Assembly: GCF_014200015.1 (NCBI RefSeq)
Contig: NZ_JACHOT010000002.1
Span: 310,001-374,000 of the forward strand
Reading direction: 5' to 3'
DNA from: Aminobacter niigataensis
Lineage (GTDB): Bacteria > Pseudomonadota > Alphaproteobacteria > Rhizobiales > Rhizobiaceae
DNA length: 64,000 nt
The translations under genes were made by a program, and so were the position numbers. Below are positions 483-5,700 of this stretch, in pieces. The notes under the pieces were generated by a model. That model searched no databases. It was not told where the DNA came from and was given only the letters and a program-made list of their open reading frames with translations. How positions within the stretch are numbered: position 1 is the stretch's first letter; each line of letters opens with the position of its first letter.

Positions 483-2183
483 CTACGCATCGTGCTTCCC
501 GAAAATCGATTCCGATTTTCGGGCCGATGCGTGGGGCAGCGTAATCACAAACCGCGCGCCGCCACCGGCATCATTTCCGGCCTCGATCCGCCCGTCGACC
601 CGCTCCACCAGCGTCTGGCACAAGGAAAGCCCCAGCCCCATGCCGTCGGCCTTGGTGGTGAAGAACGGCACGAACAGTTTCGGCAGCACGTCGGCCGGTA
701 TCCCCGGCCCGTTATCCGCCACCTCGATCTTCGCGTCTGCGCCCACGACCTTCGTCACGATCGAAATCCGCGCGTCCAAAATCCCAGCCCCTTCCAGCGC
801 ATCGGCCGCATTGCGGATCAGATTGTGCAGCACCTGCTCCATCTCGATGGCGTCGACCACCGCCTCCGGCGCCTCCGCCGAAAGGTCCAGCTCCAGCTTG
901 ATCCCACGCCGTTCGAGATCGGCTGCCGTCAGTGCCACGATCTCGCTGACGATCCCGTTGAGTGCGCTCGGCTTTGGCTCCGGCGCCTTGTTGGAGGCAT
1001 AGTCGCGCATCCGCTTCAGCATCTCGCCGGCGCGCTTGGCCTCGCGTACATTGACGTCGAGCGCCTGCGTTATCATGCCGAGATCGGGTTTTTCCGCACC
1101 CGCTAGCCTGAGCGCCGCCTGGCTGCGGCTCAGCACCGCCGTCAGCGGCTGCGTCAGCTCGTGCGCGATGCCGGACGCCAGCTCGCCCATGGCGTTGACG
1201 CGCGAGGCATGCGCCAGCAGCGTCTCCCGCTCCTGCAACAGCGCCCGTGCCTCCGCCTGCCGTGCCACTTGTTGCGATTGTTGCGCCGCCGCCCGCTGCC
1301 TGAGCGCAAACATCAGCGCAAACGACGCCAACCCGGCCAAGACGGCAAACCCAAGCAACGACCGCCACGGCAAAAGCGCGTCGAGCGGCAAGGCCCGGTC
1401 GAGCGAAAGCAGGATCTTCTGCCCCTCGCCGTCGATCACTTTCTCGAAATGCGGCGCGGTGAAATGCGGTGCCAACGAAGCGCCCGCGCCCAGATCATCC
1501 TCCGCAGGCAGGTCGAGCAATTCCTGCCCGTCGAGCGTCAGCCTCAGATGTGCCCAGGCCGGCCGCTCCTCCGGCTCGAGCAGAAGTGCTGCGTCGATGC
1601 CGAACACCAGCGCCGCATCGGAAGGTGCGGGCGCCCGCTTGGCCAAGAGATAGCGCCCGTTCCCGCTGGCATGCACGCCGATCTTGCCGCGCAATTGCTC
1701 GCCGATCGCCCCGCGCAAAGGCGCGAGATCCTCGCCCCCGCCTTCGGGCACCTCGACCAGCATCCTGACCCCGCCGGCCCCAACCGCCGCCCCCGCGCCG
1801 GTGGCAACCCCCGTGCCCGCCTCGCCGCCATCGAGCGAAACCAGTGCGATCCAGGCGATGCGCGGATAAAACCTTGAAATGCTCTCCATCACCTGCCGCA
1901 CAGCGCCCAGGGGTGCTGCCTCCGCCCCGCTGGTCAGCGCGATCAGGCTGGTCATGTGCGCATCATGCTGCGCCGCCCGCTGCGAGATCAGCCGGTGCAG
2001 CGTCCGCCCGGTGACCTCCAGCTCACCCGCCAACCGCGCCCGCGACGCCTCCACCGAATAGAGCGCAAATGCCAAAAGTGCGGCGAGCCACAGCGCGAGG
2101 CCGAAGAGCCAGGATTTGGAGAGGGATTTGGTCACGCACTCAGCCCGAAAATCACCCGCAGCACGCCGCTCAAGACGAGACAA
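483..2183 (-). CDS. Membrane sensor histidine kinase (FixL/HPK4-type)
   Basis: Membrane-bound sensor kinase of 566 residues as opened from 2183. It has a TM helix at about 25-43, a periplasmic sensing region to about 270, a second TM at 272-294, a short coiled linker, the H-box GIAHELTQPLTAV with the phospho-accepting His341, and a HATPase domain with N-box (HNLIRNAADAL), G1 (DNGPGIP), F-box (FVPFFTTK) and G2 (GMGLGLSL). The HELTQPL form of the H-box is the FixL/HPK4 type. It should phosphorylate the regulator encoded 66 nt downstream. The first 16 residues are not hydrophobic and a GTG at 2135 just before TKSLSKSW is an equally good start, giving a more usual N-terminus. The periplasmic domain matches no family I can name. 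Confidence 0.88.
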   Translation of the reverse strand: MSRLERRAAGDFRAECVTKSLSKSWLFGLALWLAALLAFALYSVEASRARLAGELEVTGRTLHRLISQRAAQHDAHMTSLIALTSGAEAAPLGAVRQVMESISRFYPRIAWIALVSLDGGEAGTGVATGAGAAVGAGGVRMLVEVPEGGGEDLAPLRGAIGEQLRGKIGVHASGNGRYLLAKRAPAPSDAALVFGIDAALLLEPEERPAWAHLRLTLDGQELLDLPAEDDLGAGASLAPHFTAPHFEKVIDGEGQKILLSLDRALPLDALLPWRSLLGFAVLAGLASFALMFALRQRAAAQQSQQVARQAEARALLQERETLLAHASRVNAMGELASGIAHELTQPLTAVLSRSQAALRLAGAEKPDLGMITQALDVNVREAKRAGEMLKRMRDYASNKAPEPKPSALNGIVSEIVALTAADLERRGIKLELDLSAEAPEAVVDAIEMEQVLHNLIRNAADALEGAGILDARISIVTKVVGADAKIEVADNGPGIPADVLPKLFVPFFTTKADGMGLGLSLCQTLVERVDGRIEAGNDAGGGARFVITLPHASARKSESIFGKHDA

Positions 2184-2243
2184 TCTCGCTATGCCACGAA
2201 CCGTAATTCGCCCGCACTGTAATTTTTGAGTAAGTCGAAATTA

Positions 2244-2717
2244 TCAGCCTAAGGCAGATACGGGCAAGACTTCCTCGGCGATAAATGGACGGAATACCAA
2301 TGTGGAATTCTCTTGTATCATCTTAGAGTGACGAAATTCTTGTGACCACTTCTCAAGCGAATAATCGGGCAATGGTGCAACTAGAACAGCCATTTCGCAC
2401 TGTATAATTGCACGCATACAAGACGCACAAGGAAACAATGTTGTGTATATTGTGCACCCTTGCAGCCCATTTCCCTTCTTAATTGCAGCATAAATTGCTG
2501 AGCGTTCAGCATGCTCAACCCAGAAATTCTTTGAATCATCGCTGTTCAGATCGAATTTTTCCGGCAGACGGACAGAAACGACAGGCTCATTACACGCCTC
2601 TGAAATGACCAGCCCCCGACTGTCGGCGATTACTGCGCCGACTTGCCGGCTAGCAATTGGACTACGCGCACCTGCCGTGACAGCCCTATGCATCATTCTT
2701 TTGTCCATTAACCTCAC
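2244..2717 (-). CDS. Zinc-dependent cytidine/deoxycytidylate deaminase-family protein
   Basis: A 157-residue protein of the CDA/dCMP-deaminase fold. The zinc site is visible as H69-A-E71 (in VEHAERSAIY), with E71 as proton shuttle, and P96-C-A-S-C100. HAE followed by PCxxC is diagnostic for the superfamily and the length fits dCMP or tRNA/guanine deaminase relatives. The substrate cannot be settled. The neighbours act on pyrimidine deoxynucleotides, so dCMP or a related nucleotide is the best guess (inference). The GTG at 2717 has a GAGGAA Shine-Dalgarno; the in-frame ATG at 2708 is an alternative. Low GC and codon use unlike flanking genes suggest horizontal acquisition. It is divergent from the Dcd-like gene at 2795. 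Confidence 0.8.
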   Translation of the reverse strand: MRLMDKRMMHRAVTAGARSPIASRQVGAVIADSRGLVISEACNEPVVSVRLPEKFDLNSDDSKNFWVEHAERSAIYAAIKKGNGLQGCTIYTTLFPCASCMRAIIQCEMAVLVAPLPDYSLEKWSQEFRHSKMIQENSTLVFRPFIAEEVLPVSALG

Positions 2718-2794
2718 TTGCTCTTCCTCGACTGTTTAAGCCATATCTGACATGGCATATGCATTGCTGCACATCTATATGGAAAGAACGTGAC
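2718..2794. promoter_or_regulatory. Divergent promoter region of nucleotide-metabolism module
   Basis: This 77-nt AT-rich gap separates the divergent starts of the deaminase and the Dcd-like gene, so promoters for both directions must lie here or just inside the genes. A GGAAAG Shine-Dalgarno for the rightward gene lies at about 2781-2786. I could not assign clear -35/-10 boxes. Confidence 0.4.
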
Positions 2795-3532
2795 ATGCTG
2801 CTGACGGACAATGAGATCAGACAAGCAGGCGTCGTCCGCTCTGGCCGCGACGAGCATTACGGTTCAACTTCCTATGATCTTTCCATTCGATCGATCATCG
2901 ATTCTGAAGGAAAATTGTTCGTAAGTGAAGGTTATACCGTAAAACCTCAAGAAATTGTATGGGTAACGTCAAAGGAAAGAATAGTACTTAACTCTGATAT
3001 TACAGCTCACGCTGTCATCAGAACCAGCCTGTGCAATTCTGGCCTTCTTGCATTGAACATTGGCATCGTTGACCCAGGCTGGAACGGGCAGCTCGCCACG
3101 GCTATAATAAATTTTTCGAAATCGGAGTACTACCTGCGGCCAGGAGAGAAATTCCTCCGCTTATCTTTTTATAAGCACTCGACTCCAACCAAAGTGAACA
3201 ATATAAATAAGACCGAACTAGAATACATACAAGAAAGAAAGAAACTTGCCATAGAGACGTTTGGATCAACATTCCTAAATGTGGAAGACCTGACGCGACG
3301 AGTTCGTGAAAGCTTCATAGGGAGTTGGAAAGAGAAAACCATTCTTTGGGGCGCCATGGGCGCAATCATATTTGGATTTCTGTCGATATTCGTGGCTATT
3401 GCAGCATATATTATACCATGGAACGGAGCTTTATATCAAAGCAACTTTGAAGATCTTCAAGAGCGCGTGGGTATTCTAGAAGGCATGATTAAGAAAGAAG
3501 GCATGGTCGGAACAAACAGAGAGACTGAATGA
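2795..3532 (+). CDS. Membrane-anchored dCTP deaminase/dUTPase-fold protein, catalytic residues altered
   Basis: Starting at the ATG at 2795 (GGAAAG 9 nt upstream), the protein has 245 residues. Residues 1-128 follow the Dcd/dUTPase beta-barrel: LLTDNEI, TSYDLSIRS, the RTSLCNSGL motif (76-84, equal to RSSLARLGL of E. coli Dcd) and VDPGWNG (92-98). Against E. coli Dcd, catalytic Arg115 aligns with Asn81 and Glu138 with Ala103, while Asp93 is kept. Ordinary dCTP deamination is therefore doubtful; dUTPase-like hydrolysis or nucleotide sensing are options. A TM helix follows at about 184-207 and a short coiled coil at 216-236, which are absent from housekeeping Dcd. The stop overlaps the next start (ATGA at 3529), indicating coupling. 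dCTP-deaminase proteins are known anti-phage effectors, so defence is plausible but inferred. Confidence 0.75.
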   Translation: MLLTDNEIRQAGVVRSGRDEHYGSTSYDLSIRSIIDSEGKLFVSEGYTVKPQEIVWVTSKERIVLNSDITAHAVIRTSLCNSGLLALNIGIVDPGWNGQLATAIINFSKSEYYLRPGEKFLRLSFYKHSTPTKVNNINKTELEYIQERKKLAIETFGSTFLNVEDLTRRVRESFIGSWKEKTILWGAMGAIIFGFLSIFVAIAAYIIPWNGALYQSNFEDLQERVGILEGMIKKEGMVGTNRETE

Positions 3533-4380
3533 GATTCTCATCTTCAAACAAGGCCCTGAAGTCACTGGCAAGTCTTGTGTTAGACCGCGGGCAGCTGACT
3601 GCTCCGCGTGGTATGCCAACGATTGAGCTCCTGGGAGTTCAATTCGTGCTCACTAACCCGCGGGCTCGGATCGTTACCTTGCCTTCGAGAAAATTCAGCT
3701 TGCCACTCGCGCTAGGTGAGCTGTGCTGGCACCTGCGGGGCGACAACGAGGTCGGCGCGCTAGCGTACTACGCAAAAGCTTGGCGTACGTTCACAGATGA
3801 TGGCCGACATGTCTCCGGAAGCTGCTACGGTAGAAAATTATTATCTGATAGCTGCGAAGGGACTACCGCTTGGAACCGCCTGGTCAACCTTTTGCGTCAC
3901 GACCCCTCCACGAGAAGGGCAACTTTCAGCTTCATTAGCAATGAAGAACAGGTTGAGGCCTCTCGGGATGTAAGCTGTGTCAGCAATATCCAGTTTTTAC
4001 TAAGAGGCGGAAAGATTCATCTCTTTACGTTTATGAGAAGTAACGATCTTTTCCTTGGGCTCCCCTACGATTTATTCCTCTTCACCTACTTTCAGGAACT
4101 AATGAGCCTCGAACTCGGCGTCCCGATGGGGGAATACCATCACTACGCCACGTCTCTGCACATTTACGAGCACAACATCGTTGCTTGCAAAAACATGGCT
4201 CAAGAGCAAGATTTGCCTGACGGATACTCACCTAAGATCAACAGCAAACAGGACCTTGTAGAGCTTGCCGAAACTGAGGCGTCTATAAGGCTGGGGGACA
4301 CTTCACCGTACCGTGACGGCCCTTTGACGGCATATGTTGAGGCGCTCTTGGACTTTCGGCAGAACGTTCACTCCGACTAG
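3529..4380 (+). CDS. Thymidylate synthase-family protein with dCMP-hydroxymethylase-like specificity residue
   Basis: A 283-residue ThyA-fold protein. Conserved landmarks are E64 in ELCWHLRGD, Y100 in CYGRK, nucleophile C150 in RDVSCVSN, the phosphate/ligand motif MRSNDLFLGLPYD (R170, D173) and H211/Y213 in HIYEH. Two differences from true thymidylate synthase stand out: the His after the nucleophile is Val151, and the Asn in LGLPFN that reads the uracil ring is Asp181. Asn-to-Asp at this place is the hallmark of dCMP hydroxymethylases (T4 gp42, MilA-type CMP hydroxymethylase), so dCMP is the likelier substrate. The gene is coupled by a 4-nt overlap to the Dcd-like gene. Whether methylation or hydroxymethylation occurs cannot be told from sequence. 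Confidence 0.82.
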   Translation: MRFSSSNKALKSLASLVLDRGQLTAPRGMPTIELLGVQFVLTNPRARIVTLPSRKFSLPLALGELCWHLRGDNEVGALAYYAKAWRTFTDDGRHVSGSCYGRKLLSDSCEGTTAWNRLVNLLRHDPSTRRATFSFISNEEQVEASRDVSCVSNIQFLLRGGKIHLFTFMRSNDLFLGLPYDLFLFTYFQELMSLELGVPMGEYHHYATSLHIYEHNIVACKNMAQEQDLPDGYSPKINSKQDLVELAETEASIRLGDTSPYRDGPLTAYVEALLDFRQNVHSD

Positions 4381-5180
4381 GCACGCATACATGCTGGCTG
4401 TAATTGGCGCACCACTGACTTGAAGCTTTTAGCAGGTGGTGAAGCAATTGACGAACGCTCGGCCGGCGTAGATTTTGCCGAAATGTGCCCCTCGTGCATG
4501 TGCCAATGCACCCCAAGCCTCCTGAGCCGGAATATTACTTCCATGACCGACGCATGGCGCGGAATCCGCACAATCACTGCCTGACCTAGGTTGCTAACCC
4601 GGACAATGAGGTAGTTAACCACTGCACGGCAATTTTGGCAGACGTGTTCGCGCAGACCGGATGAACTTGGCATTCTCCCACCCAAATGGCTACCAGAGTG
4701 GATAGATTCTCGTACCCATTGGCACCGAGGCTTTCCCTCCAATCATGCTAACATGTTGGAATACATACGTTTCTTGGGTTATTTTCCTTCACGTCGAATA
4801 ATTTTCTTTTCCACGCCCCTTCGCACCTGACGGATAATCCCCGCATCGCCCTCAGGGAACCCGGGTCATGAACCGGATGCCTGGGGAGGGCGACGGCGTC
4901 CGGGCTGGCAGGGGATACGGTGCCCCTGCTGGGTGATGAGCCCCCAAGTCCGGGCCTTGCGGCGGCTGACGGTGAAAGCCGAGGCGACTGAGCGGGGCAA
5001 GAGCGCTGGCGGACGCATGGCTGCGCGTCACGCACTAGCATCTGAGAGACGCAAGGCCATGCGTCCGGTTCCCAATCCCGGCTTCATCAGCGCGGGACAC
5101 TTTTGTGCGCCCAGATTTTCCCCAACCACCTTGCCCGCGCCCAAAAAGACCCGCGCGGGCCGCCAACCGGAGACAGCTTC
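4381..5180. other. Unassigned 800-nt interval after the nucleotide module
   Basis: I see no convincing gene here. The first half (to about 4800) is AT-richer, like the module to its left. From about 4850 the DNA becomes GC-rich again with several short inverted repeats (for example CCGGGTCATGAACCGG at about 4860-4875). Open frames on both strands lack a family match and a Shine-Dalgarno. The compositional change near 4.8 kb probably marks the right edge of the inserted module. A structured RNA in 4840-5090 cannot be excluded but matches no class I recognise. Confidence 0.5.
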
Positions 5181-5477
5181 ATGTCGAGGAAACGCAAGCA
5201 AGAGATCGAAATCATCGACCCGCCGCTGCCGGGCTACGGCCGCCTGCCCTATTCCATGCACAACGCGCTGGTGCTCGCCGTCAGCATCGCCGCCACCATG
5301 GAGGGCGCGCATCTGAAGTGCCAGCGCCGCGAATGCCGCAATTTCGGTCGCTGCCGCGCCTCGCCGACCGAATTCGGCCGCGCCGGCTTCTGCCCGGTGC
5401 CGCTCAGTCGCGCCGCCGACCGCCGCATCGAGGGCATGCTCCTGTTCGTCCTGCAACTCGCCAATGGCTGGCGGTGA
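5181..5477 (+). CDS. Conserved hypothetical protein, cysteine-containing, 98 aa
   Basis: The start at 5181 is preceded by GGAGAC. The protein has 98 residues: a basic start (MSRKRKQEIEIIDPP), then CQRRECRNFGRCRASP with three closely spaced Cys plus a fourth in GFCPVPLS, which could bind a metal. GC content and codon use match the core genome. I do not recognise the family and propose no function. An in-frame start at 5103 is open but lacks a ribosome-binding site. Confidence 0.55.
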   Translation: MSRKRKQEIEIIDPPLPGYGRLPYSMHNALVLAVSIAATMEGAHLKCQRRECRNFGRCRASPTEFGRAGFCPVPLSRAADRRIEGMLLFVLQLANGWR

Positions 5478-5700
5478 CGATTGGCAAGGCGCCCTCATCC
5501 GGCCCTTCGGGCCACCTTCTCCCCGCTGGGGACAAGAGGCGCGCGGCGGCGCCTCAGGCCTCCTCGCCCGGCGCTCTTCTATCAGCTGTGTAGCATTTTC
5601 GCCACACCCTGTAACTCTTCTTGGTGGAGCGGGTTCTCCGCTTTCCAACGAACCCTAGCGTGTTTAACCGTTGGTTGGGGATTCAGGGAGGGGTTGGCAC

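What the first reader, a model, noticed from the sequence alone, without database searches (positions are those of the whole stretch)
2244..4380. Divergent three-gene pyrimidine nucleotide module
An AT-rich patch in core DNA carries a zinc deaminase, a membrane-tethered Dcd/dUTPase-fold protein and a ThyA-like enzyme with a dCMP-hydroxymethylase-type Asp. All act on pyrimidine deoxynucleotides, and the second and third are translationally coupled. dCTP-depleting deaminases are known phage defence; combination with a hydroxymethylase-like enzyme suggests a modified-nucleotide or dNTP-poisoning system not described to my knowledge.
Basis: partly seen in the sequence, partly recalled or inferred. 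Interest (0 to 1): 0.85.

Follow-up and report, generated by a model that had tools for sequence, protein, structure and literature searches.

The report
Membrane-tethered pyrimidine-nucleotide defence module
A small inserted gene cluster pairs two enzymes predicted to alter the DNA building block dCMP with a membrane-anchored, apparently dead relative of dCTP deaminase; related sets recur beside restriction and other defence genes, so it may be an undescribed version of a bacterial anti-virus system, though nothing has been tested at the bench.

Summary
A 2.6-kb AT-rich insert carries a dCMP-deaminase-like gene (2244-2717, -), a DCD/dUTPase-fold protein with one C-terminal membrane helix (2795-3532, +) and, overlapping it by ATGA, a ThyA-fold protein with the published dCMP 5-hydroxymethylase signature residues (3529-4380, +). 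The genome has a separate ThyA-type gene and a dUTPase. The membrane protein is the constant part. In 16 distinct loci (window included) a divergent deaminase adjoins in 13 and the hydroxymethylase in 4; all three together only here and in Neorhizobium huautlense. An m5C methyltransferase lies nearby in 8, Vsr in 7. Of 87 DCD-domain proteins compared, all 29 with a membrane helix lack Glu138 and all 58 without one keep it. Loci of a distant clade variously hold 5-hmdU kinase, MazG-C, TS-like, UDG, Nmad2, SLOG or Thoeris TIR genes. In a sister genome the same site holds other defence-like genes. Best reading: a defence module in which a dead, membrane-tethered DCD protein senses pyrimidine deoxynucleotides handled by partner enzymes. 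Sensing and defence are inferred. New variant of nucleotide-modification conflict systems, a class already predicted and partly validated.

The parts
2151..4795 (.). Inserted AT-rich segment between conserved flanks (variable site in the genus)
   Evidence: blastn against stretches of three same-genus genomes: left flank conserved to 2136-2150 in two; right flank resumes at 4796, 4804 and 5130; other sequence lies between the flanks in two, and left of the right flank in the third, whose contig ends there; GC 0.485
2244..2717 (-). dCMP-deaminase-like zinc deaminase, 157 aa, GTG start, HAE...PCxxC intact
   Evidence: PF00383 66.8 bits; phrog_174 dCMP deaminase 79.6 bits; HAE and PCxxC invariant in 13 of 13 module copies; AlphaFold model closest to human dCMP deaminase and PBCV-1 dCMP/dCTP deaminase
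2718..2794 (.). Divergent 77-bp intergenic region between deaminase and DCD-TM start codons
   Evidence: spacing computed from start codons chosen by me; between 92 bp apart and 116 bp overlapping in the 14 loci listed there
2795..3532 (+). DCD-TM: DCD/dUTPase-fold domain, one C-terminal membrane helix, C-terminal helix; 245 aa (ORF could open at 2759)
   Evidence: PF22769; AlphaFold pLDDT about 95 over residues 1-150, best fold match archaeal dUTPase 8y1w; residues equivalent to E138, R115 and H121 of Dcd absent
3359..3415 (+). Codons of the predicted membrane helix (residues 189-207)
   Evidence: Kyte-Doolittle peak 2.51; 16 of 16 near-clade proteins have such a segment
3529..3532 (+). ATGA stop/start overlap (likely translational coupling)
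   Evidence: sequence; 4-bp overlap also in L066 and L071, 13-bp gap in L067
3529..4380 (+). Predicted dCMP 5-hydroxymethylase, ThyA fold, 283 aa
   Evidence: PDB best match MilA; E64, S98-C-Y100, R129-R130, D147/C150, S171, D181, H211, Y213 match the published signature
483..2183 (-). Left flank: sensor histidine kinase gene (named by eye; conserved; not part of the module)
5181..5477 (+). Right flank: small conserved gene (not part of the module)

Best explanation
The cluster is a horizontally acquired, defence-type module built around pyrimidine deoxynucleotides. The deaminase (active site intact) would turn dCMP, and perhaps 5-substituted dCMP, into dUMP-type products; the ThyA-fold enzyme would turn dCMP into 5-hydroxymethyl-dCMP. 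The DCD-TM protein has lost the catalytic residues of dCTP deaminase but keeps the fold and part of the nucleotide pocket; anchored in the inner membrane by one helix per chain, probably as a trimer, it would bind a pyrimidine nucleotide whose level the partner enzymes set or which infection changes, and pass the signal to the membrane (arrest or abortive infection). Shown by sequence comparison: families, signature residues, loss of catalytic residues, membrane helix, conserved linkage, variable insertion site, defence-gene neighbours. Inferred: enzyme activities, trimer, ligand, membrane effect, transfer between genomes, phage defence.
For: Linkage: divergent deaminase beside DCD-TM in 13 of 16 near-clade loci against 0 of 66 other loci kept from the same scan (Fisher 1e-12); one more case in G710. 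Hydroxymethylase signature complete in 4 of 4 module copies (papers). Membrane helix and absence of Glu138 coincide in 87 of 87 DCD-domain proteins. Setting: m5C methyltransferase in 8 and Vsr in 7 of 16 loci against 1 and 0 of 66 (Fisher 3e-6 each), L068 with an EcoRII-like enzyme; integrase-like genes, named by eye, in L032, L066 and L071; sister genome G001 carries a PD-T4-6-like kinase and a UvrD/GajB-like gene at the same site. Distant DCD-TM clade: HMUDK, MazG_C, TS-like, UDG, Nmad2, SLOG, ThsB-TIR, type IIG RM in one or more loci. Host has a separate ThyA-type gene and dUTPase. PMC13092281 reports thymidylate-synthase and 5-hmdU-kinase systems validated in defence.
Against: No activity or phage test exists. 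Three pairs (L075, L076, L079) sit beside a gene I read as rimO with no methyltransferase or Vsr hit, which could be a non-defence role. The window copy has no such hit in the first 20 kb searched, and its genome has no Vsr match. Deaminases of this family occur without DCD-TM: 39 of 289 sampled genomes have one and only 2 of those have it beside DCD-TM, so it may be an ordinary dCMP deaminase. The methyltransferase and Vsr queries came from 4 of the 16 loci, and the 66 control loci are not matched by taxonomy. Sensing is deduced only from residue loss plus a membrane helix. The helix/Glu138 association partly reflects shared ancestry, not independent events.
Confidence: 0.5

Rival explanations
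1. The enzymes are the weapon: on infection the deaminase drains dCMP/dCTP and the hydroxymethylase feeds 5hm-dCMP (and, after deamination, 5hm-dUMP) into the pool, poisoning phage DNA synthesis. DCD-TM only regulates or anchors the enzymes.
For: Both enzymes keep their active-site residues. The deaminase also matches the deaminase part of the PADLOC anti-phage dCTPase model at 70-72 bits. PMC10511110 (start of abstract in a search listing) describes a deoxycytidylate deaminase toxin in phage defence.
Against: DCD-TM, not an enzyme, is the constant member: 3 of 16 loci lack the deaminase and 12 of 16 the hydroxymethylase in the stretch searched. No nucleotide kinase for hm-dCMP is among the three genes. 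The deaminase reaches 70.7 against a cut-off of 400 for NF041025.
Confidence: 0.22
2. It is a companion of m5C restriction-modification: it handles 5-methyl- or 5-hydroxymethyl-dCMP released when methylated or hmC-containing DNA is degraded, as sanitation or as an alarm for broken DNA.
For: Vsr in 7 and m5C methyltransferase in 8 of 16 loci against 0 and 1 of 66; the L068 restriction enzyme is EcoRII-like and L070 and L073 have relatives of it; Vsr corrects mispairs from deaminated 5-methylcytosine (passage of PMC8011034).
Against: Half the loci, including the window, have no methyltransferase hit in the stretch searched; some contigs are short, so the counts are lower bounds.
Confidence: 0.15
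3. Ordinary deoxynucleotide supply: a dCMP deaminase, a membrane-attached dUTPase and a thymidylate-synthase relative that add to the host's dUMP/dTMP route.
For: Best fold matches of DCD-TM are archaeal dUTPases and Asp128/Asn141 of Dcd are kept. A DCD protein and a TS-family gene are neighbours in two control loci too (L095, L102).
Against: Host already has a dUTPase and a ThyA-type gene. Residues equivalent to E138, R115 and H121 of Dcd are absent, and an invariant Arg replaces the Ala or Gln usual at position 157; a membrane helix follows the domain. The ThyA-like protein carries the hydroxymethylase Asp residues and not the Asn and Leu of thymidylate synthase.
Confidence: 0.1

Closest known systems
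Nucleotide-modification conflict systems (HMUDK, MazG-C, aGPT-Pplase, Nmad; partly predicted in Burroughs 2015, cited as ref. 59 of PMC13092281; thymidylate-synthase and 5-hmdU-kinase systems validated in PMC13092281)
   Same: TS-fold or hydroxymethyl-pyrimidine enzymes in defence contexts; DCD-TM relatives sit directly in such clusters
   Different: The window module has no HMUDK, MazG-C or Nmad; it is C-centred (dCMP deaminase, dCMP hydroxymethylase). Whether a membrane DCD protein is described there is not known to me; Burroughs 2015 could not be read
MilA / phage T4 dCMP hydroxymethylase
   Same: Fold family and signature residues of the third protein
   Different: Deoxy-type R and S where MilA has K133 and A176; coupled to DCD-TM rather than to phage replication or antibiotic genes
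dCTP deaminase (Dcd) and archaeal DCD-type dUTPase (8y1w, 9ln0)
   Same: Fold of the DCD domain; Asp128 and Asn141 kept
   Different: E138, R115, H121 absent; membrane helix added
Anti-phage dCTP deaminase (NF041025, PADLOC dCTPase)
   Same: Deaminase domain at about 70 bits
   Different: Single-domain 157-aa protein, 70.7 against cut-off 400; divergent partner DCD-TM instead

Membership tests
dCMP 5-hydroxymethylase | Asp three residues before the catalytic Cys, Ser two before Tyr, Asp in place of the TS Asn, catalytic Glu | tested here: met
   D147/C150, S98/Y100, D181, E64 in the window and equivalents in L066, L067, L071; criteria from PMC6400193 and PMC5175136 passages
dCMP 5-hydroxymethylase | Arg and Ser of deoxy-specific enzymes (K133 and A176 in MilA) | tested here: met
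   R129 and S171; criterion from PMC5175136 passages
dCMP 5-hydroxymethylase | Makes 5hm-dCMP | not testable with these tools
   needs an enzyme assay
Ordinary thymidylate synthase | Asn for dUMP, Leu three before Cys, curated TS cut-off | tested here: not met
   D181 and D147; 53.4 against cut-off 108.35 for TIGR03284; the aligned stretch of the host ThyA-type gene has LPPC and PFN
dCTP deaminase (Dcd) | Glu138 and Arg115 (catalytic role recalled; E138 mutants appear among PDB titles) | tested here: not met
   0 of 15 near-clade and 0 of 10 clade-2 proteins against 58 of 62 in the comparison set; the other 4 also have a membrane helix
dUTPase | Motif-4 Gln, C-terminal glycine-rich motif, catalytic Asp (motifs recalled) | tested here: inconclusive
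   Asp128 kept 15 of 15, position 157 is Arg in 15 of 15, a membrane helix follows the domain; activity untested
dCMP deaminase family | HAE and PCxxC zinc site, dCMP deaminase fold | tested here: met
   invariant in 13 of 13; best fold matches are dCMP deaminases; specificity untested
Anti-phage dCTP deaminase NF041025 | Full-length model above cut-off 400 | tested here: not met
   70.7 bits, 157 aa
AvcID (deaminase plus RNA antitoxin) | Adjacent RNA antitoxin | tested here: inconclusive
   No Rfam match at gathering score in 1800-5200; I did not check that AvcI is in Rfam
Nucleotide-modification conflict system | Nucleotide-modifying enzymes of these families in mobile or defence loci (working definition, mine) | tested here: met
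   by family membership and neighbours only
Nucleotide-modification conflict system | Protects against phage | not testable with these tools
   needs plaque assays

The most novel reading that the evidence does not exclude
A new immune signalling principle: a catalytically dead dCTP-deaminase/dUTPase fold, trimeric and membrane-anchored, is the effector of a pyrimidine-deoxynucleotide alarm. Partner enzymes (dCMP deaminase, dCMP hydroxymethylase, ThyX, 5-hmdU kinase) make or erase the ligand, so cells read altered pyrimidine pools as infection and depolarise, in parallel to cyclic-nucleotide systems.
Probability: 0.2. Interest if true: 0.9.

Novelty: new variant of a known kind. Interest (0 to 1): 0.72.

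Why it matters
It gives a testable candidate for how bacteria could sense or use modified pyrimidine nucleotides in immunity, a class validated only recently and without a mechanism for these members in the passages I read. The link between membrane anchoring and absence of Glu138 marks a family of membrane pseudoenzymes whose ligand can be sought with simple binding assays, and the module includes a host-encoded enzyme predicted to make a phage-type nucleotide, 5hm-dCMP.

Tried and rejected
Ordinary ThyA: rejected on signature residues. Phage origin: DCD-TM has no match in annotated phages and no confirmed relative in two viral-contig scans; the ThyA-like protein matches 1456 phage records, all below 60% identity. 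Three-gene unit: rejected, 2 of 16. RNA antitoxin: no Rfam hit. Promoter and terminator scan: counts within about one standard deviation of the shuffles, not used. The reciprocal test from the deaminase side went partly against me: only 2 of 39 deaminase-bearing genomes of 289 have it beside a DCD-TM found at E of 1e-6 or better. Hydroxymethylase enrichment: I entered 0 of 66 controls for an adjacent gene, but one search shows 3 of 66 loci with a TS-family gene (L094, L095, L102; the last two about 500 bp downstream on the same strand), so that p-value is not used. One control locus (L110) has a deaminase-model hit, a co-directional 367-aa protein.

Limits of the counts: one search found 179 relatives and kept the best 80; I used L066-L079 as near clade and L080-L145 as the 66 controls, and never saw the other 99. 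L033 and L057 duplicate L071 and L072 and were counted once. L082, L093, L094 and L087 were taken out of the 66 before the residue comparison, leaving 62, of which 4 turned out to carry a membrane helix. The S. meliloti protein is in the 16 but not in the 87. Methyltransferase and Vsr queries came from L032, L066, L068 and L077, which match themselves by construction. Integrase, rimO, histidine kinase, XRE and ImmA/IrrE names are mine from reading the sequence. The order-wide search gave strong matches (E of 1e-50 or better) in 2 of 397 genomes and the class-wide one (E of 1e-70 or better) in 2 of 289, the window's own genome being one of the two each time: the near clade is rare.

Literature: the listings (not all hits were listed for 51 and 53) showed no paper describing a membrane-tethered DCD protein with these partners, and searches returned no paper; only CC-licensed PMC papers are held. 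Burroughs 2015 was not held, so novelty against it is unchecked.
Full report
Observation. The window holds, in a 48.5% GC stretch between 67% and 64% GC flanks, three open frames at the stated positions: a 157-aa zinc deaminase (2244-2717, minus), a 245-aa DCD-domain protein with a C-terminal membrane helix (2795-3532, plus) and a 283-aa ThyA-fold protein (3529-4380, plus) that overlaps it by ATGA. Pfam places them in PF00383, PF22769 and PF00303. The window is G000:C2:310001-374000. Its family group f1 also contains G110, whose contig has the same length as the Antarcticirhabdus aurantiaca contig of L071, so the genome belongs to a family that includes that genus; the window's own genus is not named.

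Insertion site. Against stretches of three same-genus genomes the left flank is conserved to 2136-2150 in two and the right flank resumes at 4796, 4804 and 5130. Between the flanks G001 has a different insert with a PD-T4-6-like kinase (120.6 bits) and a UvrD/GajB-like piece (38.6 bits); G006 has other cargo, without a PADLOC match in the two proteins scanned. The G005 contig ends about 1.2 kb left of the right flank, in unrelated sequence. No truly empty site was seen. None of the 9 same-genus genomes has an orthologue of the ThyA-like protein; their best matches are at E of 9.9e-15 or weaker.

The ThyA-fold protein. Its best solved relative is MilA, a CMP hydroxymethylase (1e-35), ahead of thymidylate synthases (2.7e-16). 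Papers give the signature: an Asp three residues before the catalytic Cys, a Ser two before a Tyr, and Asp in place of the TS Asn (PMC6400193, passages); Lys133 and Ala176 in CMP-preferring enzymes against Arg and Ser in deoxy enzymes (PMC5175136, passages). The window protein has D147/C150, S98/Y100, D181, R129, S171, E64, H211 and Y213, and so do the three orthologues. The predicted product is 5-hydroxymethyl-dCMP. The genome also has a ThyA-type gene (C1:470005) with the ordinary residues in the stretch aligned, a dUTPase (174.7 bits) and a tandem Dcd-like gene below the Dcd cut-off.

The deaminase. HAE and PCxxC are invariant in 13 of 13 module copies, and the AlphaFold model (pLDDT 84) is closest to human dCMP deaminase and PBCV-1 dCMP/dCTP deaminase. 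It is not a member of the anti-phage dCTP deaminase family by the curated cut-off (70.7 against 400). Deaminases of this family occur in 39 of 289 sampled genomes of the class; only in G000 and G710 is one beside DCD-TM, so the deaminase looks like a general type recruited to the module.

The membrane protein. The model (pLDDT 84 overall, about 95 over residues 1-150) matches archaeal dUTPases and dCTP deaminases. In an alignment of 15 near-clade proteins, 10 of a distant clade and 62 DCD proteins from the same scan, residues at positions 138, 115 and 121 (E. coli-type Dcd numbering, on a 193-aa Proteus protein) are Glu, Arg and His in 58 of 62 each of the comparison set and in 0 of 25 of the two clades, while Asp128 and Asn141 are kept by all 87. 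Every one of the 29 proteins with a predicted membrane helix lacks Glu138 and every one of the 58 without has it; the 4 exceptions in the comparison set are themselves membrane-tethered. All 16 near-clade proteins, the S. meliloti one included, have a helix near the C-terminus. These proteins look like pseudoenzymes anchored in the membrane; residual dUTPase activity is not excluded.

Linkage. One genome-contig scan with a four-sequence alignment found 179 relatives and kept the best 80. Fourteen are near-clade loci (L066-L079); with the window and a S. meliloti KH46 psymA copy there are 16 distinct loci. A divergent deaminase adjoins in 13 (missing in L067, L071, L077), the hydroxymethylase in 4 (window, L066, L067, L071), all three only in the window and Neorhizobium huautlense L066. 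Identities of the L066 proteins to the window are 59% (DCD-TM), 57% (deaminase) and 61% (hydroxymethylase). Among the 66 other loci kept, 0 have a divergent deaminase, 1 a methyltransferase (L082, itself a distant DCD-TM) and 0 Vsr, but 3 have a TS-family gene; in the 16, 8 have an m5C methyltransferase and 7 Vsr (queries drawn from 4 of these loci). Vsr occurs in 54 of 199 sampled genomes of the order, so by my arithmetic about one 16-kb stretch in a thousand would contain one by chance. The restriction enzyme of L068 is EcoRII-like (226.6 bits), and L070 and L073 have relatives of it. Three pairs (L075, L076, L079) sit beside a gene I read as rimO, without methyltransferase or Vsr hits. The near clade is rare: strong matches in 2 of 397 genomes of the order and 2 of 289 of the class, the window's own genome counted in both.

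The wider family. A distant DCD-TM clade is homologous (hhalign 98.4%, 8e-15). Its loci carry 5-hmdU kinase helical domains (PF18723, above 320 bits, in L060, L217, L138 and L255), MazG_C (PF18722; L062, L138, L217), UDG (L064) and DUF1643 (L218); not every locus has each, and other loci were only read by eye. Seven TS-like proteins from these loci match the TS-family profile A5 (hhalign 94%, 1e-7), though of four scanned against Pfam three gave nothing and one only E 0.09. L138, from a Pseudomonas syringae genome, adds Nmad2, SLOG and a ThsB TIR protein (187.7 bits), L255 a type IIG restriction enzyme and L065 a CARF protein. In L216 a DCD-TM overlaps ThyX (PF02511, 162.7 bits) by 4 bp. So a membrane-tethered DCD domain without Glu138 recurs with different enzymes acting on the pyrimidine ring (L065 and L216 were not in the residue comparison).

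Mechanism. The simplest model is that DCD-TM is the sensor or effector and the enzymes set or change its ligand, a pyrimidine deoxynucleotide. The fold is a trimer in known relatives (recalled), which would give three membrane helices per unit. Poisoning by the enzymes themselves, a role in handling C5-modified dCMP beside m5C restriction systems, and plain metabolism remain open, in that order.

Known or new. PMC13092281 (Science 2026; outline, passages and section 7 seen) reports validated defence systems containing a thymidylate synthase and a 5-hmdU kinase and lists MazG-C, aGPT-Pplase and dUTPase among predicted defence domains, citing Burroughs 2015, which I could not read. The listings of my searches showed no description of a membrane DCD protein with a dCMP deaminase and a dCMP hydroxymethylase. 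I therefore rate it a new variant of a known kind.

Noticed in passing
window 5492-5569: Short repeat-like stretch: the 540-base query around it gave 8-21 matches in each of 10 genomes of the genus, most listed ones to this stretch; looks like an intergenic repeat.
   Followed up: no
L222 1814-5761 (G001): The same chromosomal site in a sister genome holds a kinase with best PADLOC match PD-T4-6 and UvrD/GajB-like pieces: a possible defence hotspot of the genus.
   Followed up: partly
L216 5637-7321 (G631): DCD-TM gene overlaps a ThyX gene by 4 bp, like the overlap with the hydroxymethylase.
   Followed up: partly
L138 7821-13319: DCD-TM with 5-hmdU kinase, MazG-C, ThsB TIR, Nmad2 and SLOG cluster2 genes in one stretch: a possible combined nucleotide-modification and Thoeris-like locus.
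   Followed up: partly
L064 5130-5765, L218 8175-8732, L255 7270-7860: About 190-aa proteins (motif ...LHFAKYxGxL...) directly upstream of clade-2 DCD-TM genes; the first two scanned have no Pfam match above cut-off, the third was not scanned. Unexplained.
   Followed up: no
L065 2704-6750 (G263): A 414-aa DCD protein with a membrane helix near two P-loop genes and a CARF-domain gene (204.8 bits).
   Followed up: no
G000:C7:33412-34449 (L257, L260): The host's own Dcd-like gene is a tandem 387-aa open frame below the Dcd cut-off.
   Followed up: no
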